DNA of 34,941 bases from Sneathiella sp. (GTDB lineage Bacteria > Pseudomonadota > Alphaproteobacteria > Sneathiellales > Sneathiellaceae), in NCBI RefSeq assembly GCF_002694385.1, contig NZ_NZMB01000016.1:216693-251633 (forward strand). Reading direction: 5' to 3'. Position numbers and translations under genes: made by a program. Positions 1,238-34,941 of the stretch are shown one piece after another; positions within the stretch are counted from its first letter, which is position 1; every line of letters starts with the position of its first letter. The notes beneath the pieces are model-generated. The model searched no databases, had not been told where the DNA came from, and worked only from the letters and a program-made list of their open reading frames with translations.

Positions 1238-2716
1238 TTATTTCTTGGCGGCATCCTTTTTGGCGGCCGGTTTTTTAGCGGCAGCTTTCTTGGCAGGCGC
1301 TTTCTTAGGCGCCTCCTCATCCTTGGCATCCGCAGATTTCTTGGCCGCAGCCTTCTTCGGTGCCGCCTTCTTTTTCTTCGGCTTTGCGTCCGCTTCCTCG
1401 TCCGGATCCTTCATCAGATCTTCGACAGACACTTTCTTTTCCGTCACCGTCGCCAGTTCAGAGATAAAGTCGATAACCTTGTCCTCGAAAATCGGTGCGC
1501 GAAGTTGCGCCTGCATTTCCGGCCGCTTCTGGAACATTTCGAAGATCATCCGCTCCTGCCCCGGGTAATTGCGGGCCTGGGCGATCATGGCCTGATTGAC
1601 TTCTTCCTGAGAGACTTCAATGTTGTTGATCCGCCCGACTTCGGCCAGCAGCAGTCCGAGGCGTACGCGGCGCTCCGCAATGCCCATATATTCGGCCTTC
1701 AGCTCCTCTTCGGACTGATCCTGATCTTCCAGTTTTTCGCCATTCTGCTCCAGTTCCTGCTGGAACTGCTGCCAGATGTTATCAAACTCGCCCTGCTTCA
1801 TGCCTGGCGGCACATCAAAGTCATGGGCCTCGGCCATGGCATCCAGCATTCCGCGTTTCAGCGCCTGACGGGAAAGCTGGTTATACTGCTGTTCGATCTG
1901 GCCCCGGATGGCGTCTTTCAATGCAGCCAGATTTTCAAGGCCGAGCTTGGTCGCGAATTCATCATTGATCTCGACTTCAGCGGCTTCCTGCACTTCATGC
2001 ACCTTCACCTCGAACACAGCTTCCTTGCCAGCGAGATGCTCCGCGCCATAATTTTCCGGGAAAGTCACCTTGACTTCCACATCATCACCGCCCTTGGCGC
2101 CAACAAGCTGTTCTTCGAAGCCGGGAATGAAGGTGTTGGAGCCAAGCTCAAGCTGATGGCCTTCGGCGGAACCGCCCTCAAAAGCCTCTCCATCGAGCTT
2201 GCCAACGAAGTCGATCAGCAGGGCATCGCCCTCCTTGGATTTGCGGTTACGCGCCACCTTCTCGAAATTTTTCTGCTGACCGGCGATTTCCTTCAGCGCC
2301 TCGTCAACCTTCTCGTCTTCGACTTCAGCGACCGGCTTTTCGAGTTTCAATTTGGAAAAATCCATCGGCTTGAAGTCAGGCATCACCTCAACTTCCAGCG
2401 TAAACTCAAGATCCTTGCCCTCATCAAAGCTGGTGATTTCGATTTTCGGCTGCTGCGCCGGGCGCAGGTCATTGTCATCGAGCGCCTTCTGGCTCATCTC
2501 ATTGACGGTCTGTTCCAGAACCTCGCCCATTACGGACTTGCCGAAACGCTGACGCAGAATGGCGAGCGGTACCTTGCCCGGGCGGAACCCCGGCAATTTG
2601 ACCTCCGCGCCGACAGAAGTCAGCCGCTCGGTTACTTTCGTGTCGATTTCTGCGGCCTCGACCACAATGGTGAAATCCCGCTTTAAGCCGTCAGAGTTAG
2701 TCTGTGTAATTTGCAT
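1238..2716 (-). CDS. tig: Trigger factor (ribosome-associated chaperone and peptidyl-prolyl isomerase) with Lys/Ala-rich tail
   Basis: A 492-aa protein starting MQITQTNSDGLKRDF at 2716. An in-frame start at 2749 would add 11 residues not typical of the family. The N-terminal ribosome-binding domain carries the GFRPGKVP signature loop near residues 43-50. An FKBP-type PPIase domain and a helical C-terminal chaperone domain follow. It binds nascent chains at the ribosome exit. The last 54 residues (439-492) are low complexity, with 20 Lys and 19 Ala in AAKK/APKK-like units resembling a histone H1 tail. Family members of about 430-450 aa lack such a tail, though some relatives have one. It lies between tRNA-Leu and clpP in the same direction. 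Confidence 0.96.
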   Translation of the reverse strand: MQITQTNSDGLKRDFTIVVEAAEIDTKVTERLTSVGAEVKLPGFRPGKVPLAILRQRFGKSVMGEVLEQTVNEMSQKALDDNDLRPAQQPKIEITSFDEGKDLEFTLEVEVMPDFKPMDFSKLKLEKPVAEVEDEKVDEALKEIAGQQKNFEKVARNRKSKEGDALLIDFVGKLDGEAFEGGSAEGHQLELGSNTFIPGFEEQLVGAKGGDDVEVKVTFPENYGAEHLAGKEAVFEVKVHEVQEAAEVEINDEFATKLGLENLAALKDAIRGQIEQQYNQLSRQALKRGMLDAMAEAHDFDVPPGMKQGEFDNIWQQFQQELEQNGEKLEDQDQSEEELKAEYMGIAERRVRLGLLLAEVGRINNIEVSQEEVNQAMIAQARNYPGQERMIFEMFQKRPEMQAQLRAPIFEDKVIDFISELATVTEKKVSVEDLMKDPDEEADAKPKKKKAAPKKAAAKKSADAKDEEAPKKAPAKKAAAKKPAAKKDAAKK

Positions 2717-13930: not shown

Positions 13931-14644
13931 TTACTCCGGCGTGCGGGCAAGCCAGCGGCGCATATATTCAGTCGTCTCATCGGGCCGTTCCATGGTTGGC
14001 AAGTGCCCGCAGGTTGAAATTTCCACATATTGGGCCGTTGGAATTTCCACTGCCATTTCCCGCTGGATACGCGGCGGGATCAGCTTGTCTTCCGCTCCGG
14101 CAAGCACCAATGTCGGACATTTGATGGATCCGAGGATAGAGGTCAATTCCTCCCGCTCAAGAAGCGCTCTTTCCTGTCGGAGAAAGGCCTCTTTCCCCAC
14201 ATCTTCAGCCATTTTGAAAATACGCGATGTCAGCGCGTCATCTTCCAGCCGCGAAGGATGGATCAACGTCGGCAGAAGGCTGCGGGTCACTCCCTTGAAT
14301 GCTGACCCCTGTTCCACCAGCCGAATAAAATCGATCCGCCGCTGCCGGTCTTCCGGCGTGTCGCCGACAGCCCGAGCGTCCATAATCGCGAGATGGGTCA
14401 CCCGCTCCGGTGCCTGACGCATAATCTCAAGGGCGATGTAACCGCCCATGGAAAGCCCGGCGAGAGCAAACCGCGGTGGCGCGCTCTCCAGGATCCGCCG
14501 CGCGATATCCGGCATATTGTCATCCTGCGTATGATCGGCAATGGTGATAGTGGCAATATCAGAAAGCGCCGCGACCTGATCACGCCACAGATCAGCCGTG
14601 CACAAAAGGCCGGGAATCAGGACTAGTGAATGTTTCTCTGTCAT
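13931..14644 (-). CDS. Alpha/beta-fold hydrolase
   Basis: A 237-aa alpha/beta hydrolase. The oxyanion region LVLIPGLLCTADLW is followed by nucleophile Ser65 in AGLSMGG, an acid Asp in LAGAEDKLIPP and His in STCGHLPTMERP. The family includes esterases and lactonases; the substrate is unknown. The ATG at 14644 gives MTEKHSLVLIPGLL. A TTG start at 14677 would add 11 residues without support. Neither has a good ribosome site. It converges on parE with a 41-bp gap containing only a small GGCGG/CCGCC hairpin. It is a cytosolic enzyme (no signal peptide). Confidence 0.9.
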   Translation of the reverse strand: MTEKHSLVLIPGLLCTADLWRDQVAALSDIATITIADHTQDDNMPDIARRILESAPPRFALAGLSMGGYIALEIMRQAPERVTHLAIMDARAVGDTPEDRQRRIDFIRLVEQGSAFKGVTRSLLPTLIHPSRLEDDALTSRIFKMAEDVGKEAFLRQERALLEREELTSILGSIKCPTLVLAGAEDKLIPPRIQREMAVEIPTAQYVEISTCGHLPTMERPDETTEYMRRWLARTPE

Positions 14645-14807
14645 TATTATACAAATTGTTGTAATGTTAGGACACAATCGCCCGAGACCGCTTGCCCTAC
14701 TTTTACAGTCAAGATCGGGGATTGAGAACCATTAACTTTAATTTTCGCTTTTTTTAGGGTAAACCGTTGCCAATTGCCCGGTTTTACTCAAATCAGGCAG
14801 GAAATGT

Positions 14808-14835
14808 TTGACACAAAGCGTCAATTCACTAGATT
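14808..14835 (+). promoter_or_regulatory. Candidate sigma-70 promoter of the DEAD-box helicase gene
   Basis: TTGACA (14808-14813), a 16-nt spacer and TAGATT (14830-14835) form a good -35/-10 pair. They would give a transcript start near 14842 and a leader of about 45 nt before the ATG at 14886. An imperfect inverted repeat (GTAAACCG 14759-14766 / CGGTTTTAC 14779-14787) lies just upstream and could be an operator. Confidence 0.6.
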
Positions 14836-14885
14836 GCGCAGAGTTTTACGAAGATTTTATTATTCAGAACGGTATCTCACACTAT

Positions 14886-16292
14886 ATGATATTTGCAGAT
14901 CTCGGACTAAGCCCCGACGTATTGAAAGCGGTTGAAGAAACCGGTTACGTAACTCCCACGCCCATTCAGGAAAAGGCCATTCCTTATGTACTGATGGGGC
15001 GGGATGTTTTGGGCACAGCGCAAACCGGCACCGGCAAGACAGCGAGCTTTACTCTGCCGATGATCGACATTCTCGCGGCCGGTCAGGCAAAAGCGCGCAT
15101 GCCCCGTTCTCTCATTCTGGAACCGACCCGCGAACTGGCAGCGCAGGTCGCCGACAATTTCGAAACCTATGGCAAATATTGCAAACTTTCCATGGCCCTG
15201 CTGATTGGCGGAGTTTCCTTCTCTGATCAGGATTCCAAGCTCGACAAAGGGGTGGATGTTCTGATCGCGACGCCGGGCCGCCTACTCGACCATGTGGAAC
15301 GCGGCAAGGTTATGATGAATGGCGTGAAAACGCTGGTGATTGACGAAGCCGACCGGATGATGGATATGGGATTCATTCCCGATGTGGAACGCATTGTCTC
15401 CCTTCTCCCGCCGCTGCGCCAGACGCTCTTCTTCTCGGCCACCATGTCCAAGGACATGCGCAAGCTGGCTGATAAATTTCTGCATAATCCAAAGGAAGTC
15501 GCTGTCTCGCCGCCCACCTCCACCGCGGCGACAGTAACGCAGCGCCTGCTGATGGTGCAAAAGATCGAGAAACGTCCGGCACTGCGGAAGCTGCTGGAAA
15601 CCGAGAATGTGAAAAACGCCTTCATTTTCTGTAATCGCAAGAAAGATGTGGATATCCTGCTCGGCTCGCTGGTCAAGCATGGCTTCAACGCGGGCGGCCT
15701 GCATGGCGATATGAGCCAAAGCCATCGCATGGAAACGCTTGAGAAATTCAAAAGCGGCGAGATCAAGCTACTGGTCTGTTCCGATGTCGCGGCGCGCGGA
15801 ATCGATGTCAGCGCCGTCAGCCATGTTTTCAATTTCGATGTGCCGACCCATGCTGAGGATTATATCCACCGCATCGGACGCACGGGGCGCGCCGGTCAGG
15901 AAGGGCATGCCTTCACCCTTGCAACCAAATCTGATGGCAAATATCTCGATGCGGTTCAGAAGCTGGTAGGTAAGGAAATTCCTCACCTCTCCCTGGACGG
16001 AATGGAAGATATCTCCGCGGAAGCGGCTCGTATCGCCGAGCGGGAAAAACGCTATAAGCAGGAAGAAAAAGCTGGCGGCCGCAAAGGGCGCCGTCGCAAG
16101 GAAGATCCCAAACCTGCCGCACCACGAAAAAATGCCGACAGTGCAGAAAAACCGGCGCCTGCTCGAAAAGAGCGCAGTAAATCAAACGACAATCGACAAT
16201 CCCGGGAAGATGGGGATACTCCCGTCCTGGGCCTCGGGGACAATGTTCCGGCCTTTTTCAACATTACCTTTCGAAAATCCGCCGGAAAATAG
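14886..16292 (+). CDS. DEAD-box ATP-dependent RNA helicase, RhlE-like
   Basis: A 468-aa helicase with all core motifs: Q motif (GYVTPTPIQ), AQTGTGKT (45-52), PTRELA, TPGRLLD, DEAD at 153-156, SAT, IFCNRKKDVD, VCSDVAARGID and HRIGRTGRAG. A basic Lys/Arg/Pro-rich tail (about 385-455) resembles RhlE-type tails that bind RNA. It probably remodels rRNA or mRNA structures, often in cold adaptation or ribosome assembly. The start at 14886 (MIFADLGLSPDVLKAVEETG) matches the family. A longer frame from a TTG at 14808 begins inside the promoter -35 box. A terminator follows the stop. Confidence 0.95.
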   Translation: MIFADLGLSPDVLKAVEETGYVTPTPIQEKAIPYVLMGRDVLGTAQTGTGKTASFTLPMIDILAAGQAKARMPRSLILEPTRELAAQVADNFETYGKYCKLSMALLIGGVSFSDQDSKLDKGVDVLIATPGRLLDHVERGKVMMNGVKTLVIDEADRMMDMGFIPDVERIVSLLPPLRQTLFFSATMSKDMRKLADKFLHNPKEVAVSPPTSTAATVTQRLLMVQKIEKRPALRKLLETENVKNAFIFCNRKKDVDILLGSLVKHGFNAGGLHGDMSQSHRMETLEKFKSGEIKLLVCSDVAARGIDVSAVSHVFNFDVPTHAEDYIHRIGRTGRAGQEGHAFTLATKSDGKYLDAVQKLVGKEIPHLSLDGMEDISAEAARIAEREKRYKQEEKAGGRKGRRRKEDPKPAAPRKNADSAEKPAPARKERSKSNDNRQSREDGDTPVLGLGDNVPAFFNITFRKSAGK

Positions 16293-16304
16293 ATTACTGC
16301 TCGA

Positions 16305-16331
16305 CAAGGCTTCCTTTGGGGAGCCTTTTTT
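16305..16331 (+). terminator. Rho-independent terminator after the helicase gene
   Basis: AAGGCTTCC and GGGAGCCTT (one T-G pair) form a 9-bp stem around a short loop, followed by a T-run. It begins 13 bp after the helicase stop. Confidence 0.85.
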
Positions 16332-16416
16332 GTTTTCATGCGCTTCTGAAATTCGTACTATCCGGCCTAACTGCTTCCTGATCTCAGGCGATTAACCCGA
16401 AGGAAAGGCAATCCGC

Positions 16417-16659
16417 GTGAAAACGATCTTCATCATGGTAAAATGCGAACTTGGAAAGGCCTATGACGTCGCGGCGGCATCTGTTGAAAATGTCGAGCAG
16501 GTTTCAGAGGTTTATTCTATTTCTGGGAATTATGACCTGATGATGAAGTGTTACCTTAATGAGGATCAGGATATTGGCCATTTCGTTAATGAGCAAATTC
16601 AGACCCTGCCCGGTATCAAGGATACCTTCACCCTGATCACCTTCAAGGCATTCAGTTGA
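16417..16659 (+). CDS. Stand-alone Lrp/AsnC ligand-binding (RAM) domain protein
   Basis: An 80-aa protein that is a complete RAM domain (beta-alpha-beta-beta-alpha-beta): MKTIFIMVKCELGKAYDVA, then SVENVEQVSEVYSISGNYDLMMKCYL and a final FTLITFKAFS strand. The DNA-binding HTH of Lrp is absent. Such free-standing RAM proteins oligomerise and bind amino acids, and are thought to act as effectors or sensors. It starts with GTG at 16417 after GAAGGAAAGG. It lies 132 bp upstream of the amino-acid-type ABC importer in the same direction, so a link to that importer is plausible but unproven. Confidence 0.88.
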   Translation: MKTIFIMVKCELGKAYDVAAASVENVEQVSEVYSISGNYDLMMKCYLNEDQDIGHFVNEQIQTLPGIKDTFTLITFKAFS

Positions 16660-16791
16660 TCGTAAATTGCCTGATTTTCTTTTGCCTGCAAAACAACCTT
16701 TCCCCACGCGGCGAATTTCTTTAAGCTGCTCATTGCTTTAGGGAGGGGAGCGGGGTATCCCGTTTCTGAGACAGCACAGGGAGACTTCATC

Positions 16792-17967
16792 GTGAAAAAG
16801 ACACTTATCAGCATGGCATCCGCATTGGCCTTGCTGGGCGCTCCGGCGCTCGCTACGGCGGCTGACGCCGTCAAGATCGGCTTTGTAACAACGCTTTCGA
16901 CGGGTTCAGGCGCCATTGGCGAAGACATGCGCAATGCCGTCGAGCTTGCCATCGAACATCTTGGCGGCAAAATGGCGGGCCGGGATATCGACGTGATATA
17001 TGAAGATGACGCTTTCAAACCGGAAGTTGGCAAGCAAAAAACCGACAAGCTGGTCAAGAAAGACAATGTGGATTTCGTTGCCGGTTATATCTGGAGCCAT
17101 GTCCTGATGGCGTCTTACAAAAGCGCCGTGGATAATGGCAAGTTCCTGATCAGCTCCAATGCCGGGCCCAGCGCCCTCGCCGGCAAGCTCTGCCATCCGG
17201 ATGTCTTTTCCACCTCCTGGCAGAATGATCAGACCACTATGGCCATGGGCGATCTGCTCAACCAGCGCGGCATCAAGAAGCTGTATATCATGGCTCCCAA
17301 CTATGCGGCAGGCAAGAACATGGTTGAAGGGGTGGAACGCACCTTCAAGGGTGAGGTCATCGGCAAGGATATGACCAAATTTCCGGCTCAGCTCGATTTC
17401 TCGGCTGAGCTTGCCAAGGTGCGGGCGGCCGAACCGGATGCCCTTTTTGTCTTTTACCCGGGCCGCCACGGTGTCCAGCTCCTGACGCAGTACGCGCAGG
17501 CCGACCTCGCGAAAACGGTGCCGCTCTATACTGCCTTCACAATCGATTCTCTGAGTCTGCCCCGGGTTGGGGAGCAAGCTCTCGGCAGCCTGATGACCAT
17601 GTTCTGGTCGCCTGATTTGGACGTTCCGGCCAACAAGAAGTTCGTCAGTGATTTCAAGGCGAAACATGGTACATACCCAAGCCATTACGCCGCCCAGTCC
17701 TATGACACCATCATGCTGATCAACAGCGCCGTGGAAAAGGTGAAGGGAGATCTGTCCAACCGGGATGCGGTGCGGGATGCGCTCAAAGCCGCCGAGTTTG
17801 ACAGTATCCGGGGCGACTTTAAATTTGGCCATAACCATCTTCCGATCCAGGATTTCTATCTCCGCGAAGTCGTCAAGGATGCGGATGGCATGTATACAAC
17901 AAAAATCGTCGCCAAAGTATATGAGGATCATCAGGATCCCTATGCGGCGGAATGCAAGATGAACTAG
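16792..17967 (+). CDS. ABC transporter substrate-binding protein (branched-chain amino acid / organic acid type)
   Basis: A 391-aa type I periplasmic binding protein. The signal peptide is MKKTLISMASALALLGAPAL with an ATA cleavage site near residue 23. The mature start DAVKIGFVTTLSTGSGAIGED is typical of LivK-like receptors, followed by the two Rossmann-like lobes (DFVAGYIWSHV, KKLYIMAPNYAAGKNM, DALFVFYPGRHGVQ). It captures a ligand in the periplasm for LivHMGF. The neighbouring CoA-catabolic genes and the subfamily feel suggest an aromatic or organic acid as an alternative to Leu/Ile/Val, but this is inference. It starts with GTG, preceded by GGGAGA. Confidence 0.93.
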   Translation: MKKTLISMASALALLGAPALATAADAVKIGFVTTLSTGSGAIGEDMRNAVELAIEHLGGKMAGRDIDVIYEDDAFKPEVGKQKTDKLVKKDNVDFVAGYIWSHVLMASYKSAVDNGKFLISSNAGPSALAGKLCHPDVFSTSWQNDQTTMAMGDLLNQRGIKKLYIMAPNYAAGKNMVEGVERTFKGEVIGKDMTKFPAQLDFSAELAKVRAAEPDALFVFYPGRHGVQLLTQYAQADLAKTVPLYTAFTIDSLSLPRVGEQALGSLMTMFWSPDLDVPANKKFVSDFKAKHGTYPSHYAAQSYDTIMLINSAVEKVKGDLSNRDAVRDALKAAEFDSIRGDFKFGHNHLPIQDFYLREVVKDADGMYTTKIVAKVYEDHQDPYAAECKMN

Positions 17968-17993
17968 GCCGCACGGCCCGTTCTAGAAGATAA

Positions 17994-18028
17994 GCCCGCG
18001 CCCGGCCCCGGAAATCGGGATCGCGGGC
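17994..18028 (+). other. GC-rich hairpin between binding protein and permease genes
   Basis: GCCCGCG (17994-18000) pairs with CGCGGGC (18022-18028). An inner CCCG/CGGG stem (18007-18010/18016-18019) sits inside with a 6-nt bulge. No T-run follows. Such hairpins often protect the binding-protein mRNA 3' end or attenuate transcription so that permease levels stay lower; that role is inferred. Confidence 0.6.
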
Positions 18029-18065
18029 GGGCCTTCATCAAACCCGAGGGGGGTCACACAGACGC

Positions 18066-18995
18066 ATGAACTGGTTGCTTCTGCTGGAACAGATCCTGAA
18101 TGGTTTCCAGCTTGGTCTGCTGCTGTTTCTGCTGGCGGCCGGGCTGACGCTCGTTTTCGGCATCATGGACATGATCAATCTTGCCCATGGCTCACTTTAT
18201 ATGATGGGCGCCTATTTCTGCGCCACCTTCACCAGCTGGACCGGATCCTTTCTGCTTGGCGCGCTATTGACGTTACCCGCGGTATTTCTGCTCGGTGTTC
18301 TGGTCGAACTGGTCGCGCTTCGCACCCTCTATACACGTGATCATCTCGATCAGGTGATGGCCACCTTTGGCCTCATCCTCTTTTTCAATGAAGCAACGCG
18401 CCTTATCTGGGGGCCGGTCGGACTGGTGATACCACTCCCTGATTTCCTCAGTCAGACCGTGGAAATCATTCCCGACGCGCCCTACCCCGCGTTTCGGCTG
18501 CTGATCATTATTGTCGGCTTTATTATCGCCGGACTTCTGTATTTCCTCGTTACGCGAACACGGCTCGGCATGCTGATCCGTGCCGGGGCCAGCAACCGCG
18601 AAATGATCGGCGCTCTCGGCATCAATATCCGCCTGCTGTTTACGCTAGTGTTCGGTCTTGGCGCGGCTCTGGCTGGGCTTGCCGGGCTGATGGCCGGACC
18701 CATTCTCTCGGTCGAGATCGGCATGGGCGAAAGCATCCTCATTCTCACCCTCGTCGTCATCGTCATCGGCGGCATTGGTTCTATCAAGGGAGCTTTCATC
18801 GCGGCCATCCTGATCGGACTTATCGATACGGTCGGGCGCTCGTTCCTGCCGGAACTGCTGGATATCTTCTTGCCCTCCGACAGCGCGGCGACAGCAGCGC
18901 CCGCCATTGCCTCCATGCTGATCTATCTACTGATGGCGCTCATTCTCGCCATTCGGCCGCAAGGACTGTTTCCGCCGAAGGGGGTCGGTAAATGA
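18066..18995 (+). CDS. livH: Branched-chain amino acid-type ABC transporter permease LivH
   Basis: A 309-aa integral membrane permease with about 8 hydrophobic segments. The N-terminus LEQILNGFQLGLLLFLLAAGLTLVFGIMDMINLAHG is typical of LivH: the GLTL..G...INLAHG motif. The cytoplasmic coupling-loop region is RAGASNREMIGALGIN, near residue 180. It forms the inner-membrane channel with LivM. Its stop overlaps the livM start by 4 bp (ATGA). There is a 98-bp gap with a hairpin between it and the binding-protein gene. Confidence 0.95.
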   Translation: MNWLLLLEQILNGFQLGLLLFLLAAGLTLVFGIMDMINLAHGSLYMMGAYFCATFTSWTGSFLLGALLTLPAVFLLGVLVELVALRTLYTRDHLDQVMATFGLILFFNEATRLIWGPVGLVIPLPDFLSQTVEIIPDAPYPAFRLLIIIVGFIIAGLLYFLVTRTRLGMLIRAGASNREMIGALGINIRLLFTLVFGLGAALAGLAGLMAGPILSVEIGMGESILILTLVVIVIGGIGSIKGAFIAAILIGLIDTVGRSFLPELLDIFLPSDSAATAAPAIASMLIYLLMALILAIRPQGLFPPKGVGK

Positions 18996-33258: not shown

Positions 33259-33657
33259 GTGAATAAATTGACAGGGAACATCGAGGGGAAATTCCCGGAC
33301 GCACTGGAACTGAAACAATTTATCATCAGCAGTGAAACTATGTCGCAGTTCCAAAAACGTGTCAGAATGCGGCTTTTGACCATCATTGCGGACGGCAACC
33401 TTTCCATCGAGGCCCTGTCCCATGACATGGCAATGAGTTCCCGCACTTTGCAACGCCGCCTCAAAGGCGAAGGAACAAGCTATCAGAACGAAGTCAACCA
33501 TCTGCGCGAAGATCTGGCCCGCTACTATCTGATCAACACTAGCTATACGGGCTCCGAGATTGCCTATCTTCTGGGATATGGTGATGCAAATTCCTTTTTC
33601 CGCGCCTTCCATAGCTGGACAGGACAGACCCCACGATCCCTCCGCCGGAAACATTGA
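33259..33657 (+). CDS. AraC-type DNA-binding domain protein without sensor domain
   Basis: A 132-aa protein, nearly all of it the AraC/XylS DNA-binding domain. The first HTH is LSIEALSHDMAMSSRTLQRRL and the second is TGSEIAYLLGYGDANSFFRAF, ending in the family motif WTGQTPRSLRR. Full AraC regulators are about 280-340 aa with an N-terminal effector domain, which is missing here. It could be a naturally short regulator or the surviving end of a decayed gene. The start is GTG at 33259 with GGAGAG very close, or TTG at 33268 with better spacing. It lies 243 bp upstream of the giant surface protein gene. Confidence 0.85.
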   Translation: MNKLTGNIEGKFPDALELKQFIISSETMSQFQKRVRMRLLTIIADGNLSIEALSHDMAMSSRTLQRRLKGEGTSYQNEVNHLREDLARYYLINTSYTGSEIAYLLGYGDANSFFRAFHSWTGQTPRSLRRKH

Positions 33658-33900: not shown

Positions 33901-34941
33901 ATGACTCGTCAAAAGACGATGGTCGATTCTCGGGCAATGGTTGCCGTACAGTCCGGCGCAGTTATTGCTATTCCTGCCGATTTCGCTTCAAAGCTTACCT
34001 TCTCACAATCCTCCGACTCCCTCGTTCTGACCTCCATGGACGGAATTGAGATTATTCTGAGAAATTACTTCGCAACACGGACACATGAGGAACAACCTCT
34101 TCTCCAGATTGGAGAGAACGGCCCGTTCCTCGAGATCGAGCAGGTCATCGACAAAATCGAGAATTTTGATGCAACCTATATGACATCGCAAGATGACCCT
34201 CCCAGATCGGGCGCCAGCTTCACGCTGTATAATCATGAAGAAATAGGAGACGGGCTCGATATCTCCGATCTTTTGTCCGGAACGAATATCACCCTTAACA
34301 CGCCCGGATTCGCACGACATGCCAGCGAAATTGGAGCAGATTCCGCGCGTCTCCCTCCCCCGAATGTTGGATCGATCTTCTCCGGCACCGCCGATATCAC
34401 CGCGCCGACCCTCACCATCACCGCCGATGACTTCTCCCTCGCCGAAGGACAGAGCACCACGGTGTATTTCACCTTCTCCGAGGAGGTTACCGGCTTCGAT
34501 ATCAGTGATGTGGCCGTGGAAGGCGGCCTTCTCTCCGCCTTCACGCAGCTCGATGGCAGCCACTGGACCGCCACCTTCACGCAGGACGGCGCCGATCCCC
34601 CCGCCCTCACCGTCGCCGATCACAGCTATACCGATCTCACCGGCAATCTCGGCACAGGCGACAGCCTATCGGGAACAGCTGATATCGTTGCCCCGACATT
34701 GACCATCACCGCCGATGACTTCTCCCTCGCCGAAGGCCAGAGCACCACGGTGTATTTCACCTTCTCCGAGGATATCACCGGCTTCGATATCATCGATGTC
34801 ACCGTCGAAGGCGGCCTTCTCTCCGCCTTCACGCAGCTCGACGCCAGCCACTGGACCGCCACCTTCACGCAGGATGGCGCCGATCCGCCTGCAATCACCG
34901 TGGCCGATCACAGCTATACCGATCTCACCGGCAATCTCGGC
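33901..34941 (+). CDS. Large Ig-like-repeat surface/secreted protein (adhesin-like), N-terminal part
   Basis: An open frame of 347 codons with no stop before the window end. The start ATG (MTRQKTMVDSRAMVAVQSGA) is the first after an in-frame stop at 33883. Residues about 13-60, with SGAVIAIPADF, SDSLVLTSMDGIEIILRNYF, resemble the short N-terminal module of giant type I-secreted adhesins. No Sec signal peptide is seen, which fits type I secretion. From about residue 165 there are Ig-like repeats of the Big_12 kind (TVYFTFSEEVTGFDISDVAVEGG). It probably forms a long cell-surface fibre for adhesion or biofilm. Secretion genes are not in the window. Confidence 0.82.
   Translation, partial: MTRQKTMVDSRAMVAVQSGAVIAIPADFASKLTFSQSSDSLVLTSMDGIEIILRNYFATRTHEEQPLLQIGENGPFLEIEQVIDKIENFDATYMTSQDDPPRSGASFTLYNHEEIGDGLDISDLLSGTNITLNTPGFARHASEIGADSARLPPPNVGSIFSGTADITAPTLTITADDFSLAEGQSTTVYFTFSEEVTGFDISDVAVEGGLLSAFTQLDGSHWTATFTQDGADPPALTVADHSYTDLTGNLGTGDSLSGTADIVAPTLTITADDFSLAEGQSTTVYFTFSEDITGFDIIDVTVEGGLLSAFTQLDASHWTATFTQDGADPPAITVADHSYTDLTGNLG
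34393..34941 (+). repeat. Tandem 288-bp repeats encoding 96-aa Ig-like domains
   Basis: Unit 1 is 34393-34680. Unit 2 starts at 34681 and is cut at 34941. The period is exactly 288 bp (96 codons). The units are nearly identical over long DNA stretches, for example in the segments coding ITADDFSLAEGQSTTVYFTF and SHWTATFTQDGADPPA. Such high identity suggests recent duplication or gene conversion and probable further units downstream. Confidence 0.92.

What the first reader, a model, noticed from the sequence alone, without database searches (positions are those of the whole stretch)
33901..34941. Start of a giant surface protein with near-identical 288-bp tandem repeats
Two consecutive units have an exact 288-bp period and long identical stretches at DNA level, including synonymous sites. 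This points to recent expansion or ongoing homogenisation, and probably to copy-number variation. The N-terminal module without a Sec signal resembles type I-secreted adhesins. The gene continues beyond the window, and the rest may hold calcium-binding repeats and a secretion signal.
Basis: partly seen in the sequence, partly recalled or inferred. Interest (0 to 1): 0.5.

Follow-up and report, generated by a model that had tools for sequence, protein, structure and literature searches.

The report
Repeat-bearing type I-secreted surface adhesin
The window ends inside a gene for a secreted surface protein built from repeated immunoglobulin-like blocks and calcium-binding repeats, probably used to stick to surfaces; it is an ordinary member of a known class, though it seems to lack the cut site by which many of its relatives may be released.

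Summary
The 288-bp period is real and the frame runs off the window, but the units are 89-91% identical in DNA, not near-identical. The window ends because contig C5 ends inside the array. The gene resumes on contig C27, which shares exactly 99 nt with the window's end; six other contig-end pairs also share exactly 99 nt, the mark of an assembler k-mer junction. The joined frame codes for at least 1,395 aa: N-terminal module, at least three Big_12 Ig-like units, two RTX blocks and a T1SS target domain. One LssB-type transporter sits elsewhere in the genome. The genus is Sneathiella. Three orthologues, the window's included, were found; two of the three assemblies break in the array. Of 29 distinct N-terminal modules examined, 25 carry [TAP]AAG or P[EQ]AG at the LapG-type site, one PASG, and three none: the window protein and its two orthologues. 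A side finding, a Dvh-like receptor pair with a Cys-to-Ser LapG paralogue, is more unusual. Overall: new member of a known kind.

The parts
33901..34941 (+). 5' part of the adhesin gene (347 codons, open at the contig end); continues as the 1,081-codon frame at the end of contig C27, minus strand
33901..34299 (+). N-terminal module (aa 1 to about 133), BapA_N/retention-like, shared across the genus; no [TAP]AAG or P[EQ]AG motif in the site region
   Evidence: (BapA_N E 0.0082, 16.3 bits, below cut-off 27)
34300..34380 (+). linker between the N-terminal module and the first Ig-like unit
   Evidence: position only
34381..34668 (+). Big_12 Ig-like unit 1 (288 bp, 96 aa)
34669..34941 (+). Big_12 Ig-like unit 2 (273 of 288 bp in the window)
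34843..34941 (+). 99-nt stretch identical to the end of contig C27: assembly-graph junction inside the repeat array

Best explanation
The gene encodes a type I-secreted RTX adhesin of a Sneathiella species (Alphaproteobacteria). Shown from sequence: an N-terminal module without [TAP]AAG or P[EQ]AG, then at least three 96-aa Big_12 Ig-like extender units, a T1SS-143-like stretch, an RTX block with a T1SS_VCA0849 domain, and a second, partly duplicated RTX block ending in a C-terminus conserved in the orthologues. Inferred: the C-terminus is exported first by the unlinked LapB/LssB-type transporter with its HlyD and TolC partners; calcium folds the RTX blocks outside; the Ig-like units act as a spacer rod that holds the C-terminal region away from the cell; the N-terminal module stalls in the outer-membrane channel and tethers the protein. 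Because the LapG-type cut site is missing, this adhesin is probably not released by that route, unlike many of its paralogues. Unequal recombination or slippage between units homogenises the array and may change its length.
For: Big_12 above cut-off in both contig pieces (143.9 and 85.4 bits, cut-off 27) and RTX above cut-off (99.8 bits, cut-off 23); T1SS_VCA0849 48.8 bits, cut-off 17.6. Exact 99-nt overlap of C5 and C27, with six other exact 99-nt contig-end pairs as control. Orthologues: 63% identity over the C-terminal 1,080 aa in S. sedimenti, 64% (best segment) over residues 146-1080 in a Sneathiella MAG. N-terminal modules of this family match in 18 of 24 genus genomes, own included, in open frames of 130 to 2,886 aa. 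One of 84 matches to the LssB-type ABC family passes its cut-off, with OEP, HlyD and C93 frames beside it. Site classes over 29 distinct modules: 17 [TAP]AAG, 8 P[EQ]AG, 1 PASG, 3 none.
Against: The N-terminal module is below the cut-off of BapA_N; neither the BapA nor the LapA retention model of NCBIfam was listed for the window protein at E 0.01; its predicted fold has low confidence (pLDDT blocks 23-52 over residues 1-160). TIGR03660 (T1SS-143) is below its cut-off (39.8 versus 66.05 bits). The LapG-type protease on C11 is far below NCBI's LapG equivalog cut-off (88.1 versus 320 bits). No link between this adhesin and the C11 transporter was tested. The C5-C27 join is inferred from overlap and orthologues, not from reads. 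The own paralogue on C11 has PEAG, not AAG, so whether that class is cleaved is also unknown.
Confidence: 0.82

Rival explanations
1. A fully released, soluble RTX exoprotein: the N-terminal module is not an anchor, and the protein leaves the cell entirely.
For: The N-terminal module matches known retention families only weakly, and the orthologous group lacks the cut site by which LapG acts on retention modules. RTX exoenzymes such as serralysins match its RTX part, all below their cut-offs.
Against: The same module is found in many long frames of the genus, most of the examined ones with a LapG-type motif or its P[EQ]AG variant, and the genome has C93 genes beside its T1SS. No catalytic domain reached its cut-off in the two pieces; one sub-cut-off match, PF15698 Phosphatase (17.3 bits, cut-off 28.4), falls on the Ig-like units.
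Confidence: 0.2
2. The two contig pieces belong to two different genes with similar repeats, so the true gene is something else.
For: The repeat array is what broke the assembly, and units on both pieces are alike, so a false join is possible.
Against: The S. sedimenti orthologue has the N-terminal module, Big_12 units, RTX blocks and the same C-terminus in one 1,296-aa frame; the MAG has both halves on one scaffold around a 100-N gap. Only C5 and C27 of the held contigs matched the repeat, and the exact 99-nt overlap fits one junction.
Confidence: 0.04
3. The missing cut site has been replaced by another site for the same protease, so release works as in the paralogues.
For: A stretch that aligns with the one before the paralogues' site is kept (EIEQVIDKIENF), modelled as a helix at residues 79-87, with low confidence; V. 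cholerae LapG cuts substrates that vary in consensus (passages of PMC6890996).
Against: No [TAP]AAG, P[EQ]AG or PASG in the site region of the window protein or the two orthologues; changing the di-alanine to di-arginine abolished cleavage in the V. cholerae assays (passages).
Confidence: 0.3

Closest known systems
LapA-type RTX adhesins (LapA, MapA, FrhA, CraA)
   Same: N-terminal module without a Sec signal evident by eye, tandem Ig-like extenders, RTX blocks, T1SS target domain; LssB-type ABC with HlyD and OEP in the genome
   Different: Not linked to T1SS genes; no [TAP]AAG site; much shorter than LapA (LapA's length is recalled); second RTX block, 40% identical to the first over a 293-column alignment
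BapA-type adhesins (Pfam BapA_N, NCBIfam NF033677)
   Same: Weak N-terminal match: window 16.3 bits; of ten further modules scanned, two pass the cut-off of 27 (L026 28.5, L010 27.7 bits), three match below it and five do not match
   Different: The window protein itself is below cut-off
Dvh adhesin system of Desulfovibrio vulgaris (DvhA/DvhG/DvhD)
   Same: C93 proteins and PAS/HD-GYP receptors beside the T1SS genes; both S. sedimenti receptors match the DvhD structures 9rc0 and 9rbz, one also the periplasmic 9rc2; dCache matches are below cut-off
   Different: Two receptors and two C93 genes, one with Ser in place of the catalytic Cys; the window adhesin is encoded elsewhere
Tandem-repeat extender regions of MpIBP, MhLap and AhLap
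   Same: Highly alike beta-sandwich repeats: 77-100% identity within an adhesin in Table 2 of PMC7493085 (passage); here 91-93% in protein
   Different: Big_12 family; calcium in the linkers untested here

Membership tests
Type I-secreted RTX adhesin | RTX nonapeptide repeats | tested here: met
   HemolysinCabind 99.8 bits, cut-off 23
Type I-secreted RTX adhesin | T1SS C-terminal target domain | tested here: met
   TIGR03661 48.8 bits, cut-off 17.6, residues 617-717 of the 1,080-aa C27 part, so internal; the final block did not match it but has a C-terminus conserved in S. sedimenti and the MAG
Type I-secreted RTX adhesin | Tandem Ig-like or cadherin-like extender units | tested here: met
   Big_12 in both pieces, 288-bp period
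Type I-secreted RTX adhesin | ABC, HlyD and TolC partners in the genome | tested here: met
   C11 locus; not next to the adhesin gene
Type I-secreted RTX adhesin | Secretion and adhesion shown | not testable with these tools
   needs cells
LapA/LapG-controlled adhesin | [T/A/P]AAG cleavage site after the retention module (motif from PMC13090378, passage) | tested here: not met
   absent in the window protein and both orthologues; present in 17 of 29 distinct modules
LapA/LapG-controlled adhesin | Retention module | tested here: inconclusive
   BapA_N below cut-off, no retention model listed; fold prediction of low confidence
LapA/LapG-controlled adhesin | LapG-type protease in the genome | tested here: met
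   Peptidase_C93 69.3 bits, cut-off 27, on C11, with GDCED. The stricter NCBI LapG equivalog cut-off is not met (88.1 versus 320 bits)
LapA/LapG-controlled adhesin | LapD receptor (LapD_MoxY_N) | tested here: inconclusive
   no match, but nothing rang in the 14 control genomes either
BapA-type adhesin | BapA prefix domain above cut-off | tested here: not met
   16.3 bits versus 27

The most novel reading that the evidence does not exclude
Sneathiella runs a Dvh-like release switch with a twist: two degenerate HD-GYP receptors, one LapG-type protease that keeps its Cys, and one genus-wide LapG paralogue with Ser in its place that binds but does not cut retention modules. The window adhesin and its two orthologues form a class without the cut site, held or shielded by the Cys-less paralogue, so that the cell has both releasable and permanent adhesins on one type of exporter.
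Probability: 0.12. Interest if true: 0.6.

Novelty: new member of a known kind. Interest (0 to 1): 0.27.

Why it matters
For the finding itself, modestly: it explains why the contig ends here, shows that the repeat array of this orthologue breaks the assembly in two of three genomes, and gives evidence of array homogenisation within a genus. The site comparison gives a testable split between adhesins that can and cannot be released by a LapG-type protease. The C11-type locus suggests that Dvh-like receptors, described for sulfate reducers in the paper whose passages I read, also occur in Alphaproteobacteria.

Tried and rejected
HlyD-protease fusion: in the own genome the HlyD and C93 frames look fused, but the 20-kb stretch holds 381 N, some around the junction, and in S. 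sedimenti they are two genes; dropped.

'Near-identical repeats': dropped after the unit comparison.

Downstream secretion genes: looked for on C27 and not found (six downstream frames scanned; no LssB-family match on C27). The rest of C27 was fetched but its frames were not scanned for families.

RNA elements: at Rfam's gathering thresholds only two tRNAs in the window.

Structure: one AlphaFold2 job on a 3-row alignment gave mean pLDDT 53.2; ten-residue blocks over the Ig-like units 39-83, over residues 1-160 23-52. I ran no fold search on it. The solved-structure search with the window protein gave one match, E 0.033, to a capsid protein, taken as chance; the C27 part matched RTX regions of 36 distinct sequences, one of them named a large adhesion protein.

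LapD: no match, but the control failed, so no conclusion.

The scan of named genomes used two short peptide patterns and gave three loci (4 of 27 stretches confirmed); L110 (Nostocales) is a 45% partial match to residues 528-986, which hold RTX repeats, and was not followed. Records of the own genome may be left out there.

Papers: PMC13090378 (start of abstract and passages), PMC6890996 (passages), PMC12153261 (passages; not used in the argument), PMC7493085 (passages). All others only as search listings with the start of the abstract. PMC5869472 is not held.

Full report
What is in the window. The last 1,041 bases are an open frame from ATG 33901 to the window end, translated. TRF finds a 288-bp period at 34414-34941. 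Pfam gives two stretches of Big_12, an Ig-like domain (143.9 bits, cut-off 27), so one 288-bp unit is about one 96-aa domain.

Why the window stops there. The window is G000:C5:216693-251633 and C5 is 251,633 bases long, so the window ends at a contig end. The repeat matched only one other place in the held contigs, the end of C27 on the minus strand. The ends of C5 and C27 share exactly 99 nt. As a control I compared all 60 ends of the 30 contigs for exact overlaps of 20 to 200 nt: seven pairs share exactly 99 nt, C5/C27 among them (three of the seven pair the two ends of one contig), and three pairs share 89, 25 and 20 nt. I read 99 as the assembler's k-mer. Inference: unit 2 shares no run longer than 41 nt with unit 1 or unit 3, so the 99-mer does not recur in them, and a break there suggests at least one further copy that was collapsed and lost, hence four or more units. 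Only reads could show this.

The rest of the gene. The C27 part is one frame of 1,081 codons that starts inside a unit. With the 33-codon overlap the protein is at least 1,395 aa. It holds one further full Big_12 unit (85.4 bits) and RTX repeats (99.8 bits, cut-off 23), a T1SS_VCA0849 domain above cut-off at residues 617-717 and a T1SS-143 match below cut-off. Two stretches of the C-terminal half are 40% identical over a 293-column alignment, so the RTX module is partly duplicated; S. sedimenti aligns along the whole of it. Six frames downstream on C27 were scanned: three without a match, a TonB-dependent receptor, an erythromycin-esterase-family protein and a Crp-type regulator. None of the 84 LssB-family matches of the genome is on C27.

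How alike are the units. u1/u2 88.9%, u1/u3 91.0%, u2/u3 90.3% in DNA, 91-93% in protein. Of the differing codons 18 of 26, 14 of 23 and 15 of 22 are synonymous. So the array looks constrained at protein level and is not freshly copied in this species. In S. sedimenti the two units are 97.2% or 97.9% identical depending on register, with a 261-nt exact run. Between the two species units are 70-72% identical in DNA. Homogenisation within each lineage predicts this; independent expansion in each lineage predicts the same. Against any claim of rarity, Table 2 of PMC7493085 gives 77-100% identity among repeats within three RTX adhesins (passage).

Relatives. One search found the orthologue in Sneathiella sedimenti CAU 1612 (63%, residues 1-1080) and in a Sneathiella MAG (64%, residues 146-1080), plus a partial cyanobacterial match not followed. 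The MAG has a 100-N gap directly between the N-terminal module with a repeat remnant and the region after the array. So two of three assemblies break in the array. The upstream neighbours differ between the window species and S. sedimenti. In one search, 19 of 95 genomes matched the window protein: 18 of the 24 genus genomes (own included), and G042, which matches only in the Ig-like part.

The N-terminal module. One search lists 33 N-terminal matches; 29 had a locus and were examined, the window included (four without loci were not). L109, a duplicate of L009, was dropped from the count. Classes in the site region: [TAP]AAG 17, P[EQ]AG 8, PASG 1, none 3. The three without are the window protein, S. 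sedimenti (L008) and the MAG (L009), that is, the orthologous group. PMC13090378 gives [T/A/P]AAG as the conserved LapG site, preceded by a helix and a DP motif (passage), and PMC6890996 reports that changing the di-alanine abolishes cleavage (passage). The own paralogue on C11 has PEAG, of unknown cleavability. BapA_N is matched below cut-off by the window protein and above cut-off by two of ten further modules. The fold prediction of this module is poor.

The likely exporter. One of the 84 LssB-family matches passes the cut-off. Beside it on C11 are an OEP, a HlyD frame, two Peptidase_C93 matches and two HD-GYP proteins with PAS matches. The better C93 protein scores 88.1 bits against the LapG equivalog cut-off of 320. 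The own sequence has 381 N there, so I read the clean S. sedimenti locus L135. Its two receptors match DvhD structures: the first 9rc0 at 1.4e-46 and the periplasmic 9rc2 at 1.3e-17, the second 9rc0 at 1.6e-43 but not 9rc2; the paper's data section names these entries as DvhD. By my reading the HD motif is SQ in the first (as the paper says of DvhD) and MN in the second. One C93 protein has GDCED; the other aligns to 4fgo (a LapG structure by recall; the table says periplasmic protein) without its Cys. Of 24 genus loci searched, 22 gave the second protein; after counting S. sedimenti once, Ser stands in the Cys column in 21 of 21 with a residue there, the Asp is kept in 20 of 20 and the His in 19 of 20. 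The Cys of the first was read in two species only. That this locus exports the window adhesin is inference.

Verdict. A type I-secreted RTX adhesin, new member of a known kind. That I found nothing printed on Sneathiella adhesins rests on (one paper, a sponge-symbiont study; 10 of 35 papers listed), listings only. For the Ser-bearing LapG paralogue and for Dvh-like receptors in Alphaproteobacteria: listings only; the main text of PMC13090378 has no word beginning 'alphaproteo', and its supplement was not read.

Noticed in passing
L135:6547-7263 (S. sedimenti) and genus loci L111-L132: A LapG-type C93 paralogue directly after HlyD has Ser in place of the catalytic Cys in 21 of 21 distinct genus loci with that residue; a second C93 gene keeps GDCED in the two species read.
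   Followed up: partly
L135:4491-6575 and 14007-16166; own genome L046:6607-8742 and 16004-18133: Two HD-GYP receptors homologous to DvhD lie at the T1SS genes in an alphaproteobacterium, both with degenerate HD motifs in S. sedimenti.
   Followed up: partly
L046 (G000:C11:50000-69999): 381 scattered N bases, concentrated over the C93 and HD-GYP genes; cause unknown (assembly ambiguity or masking).
   Followed up: no
L005:16030-18177: The RTX region of the adhesin is partly duplicated (40% identity), so a T1SS_VCA0849 domain lies inside the protein, before the final block.
   Followed up: partly
window 33259-33657: An AraC-type frame of 132 aa upstream covers only the C-terminal DNA-binding part of full-length models; possibly a remnant, possibly a short regulator.
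   Followed up: no
window 1241-1308: Short tandem repeat of 15/30 bp at the C-terminal end of the trigger factor frame 1238-2749.
   Followed up: no
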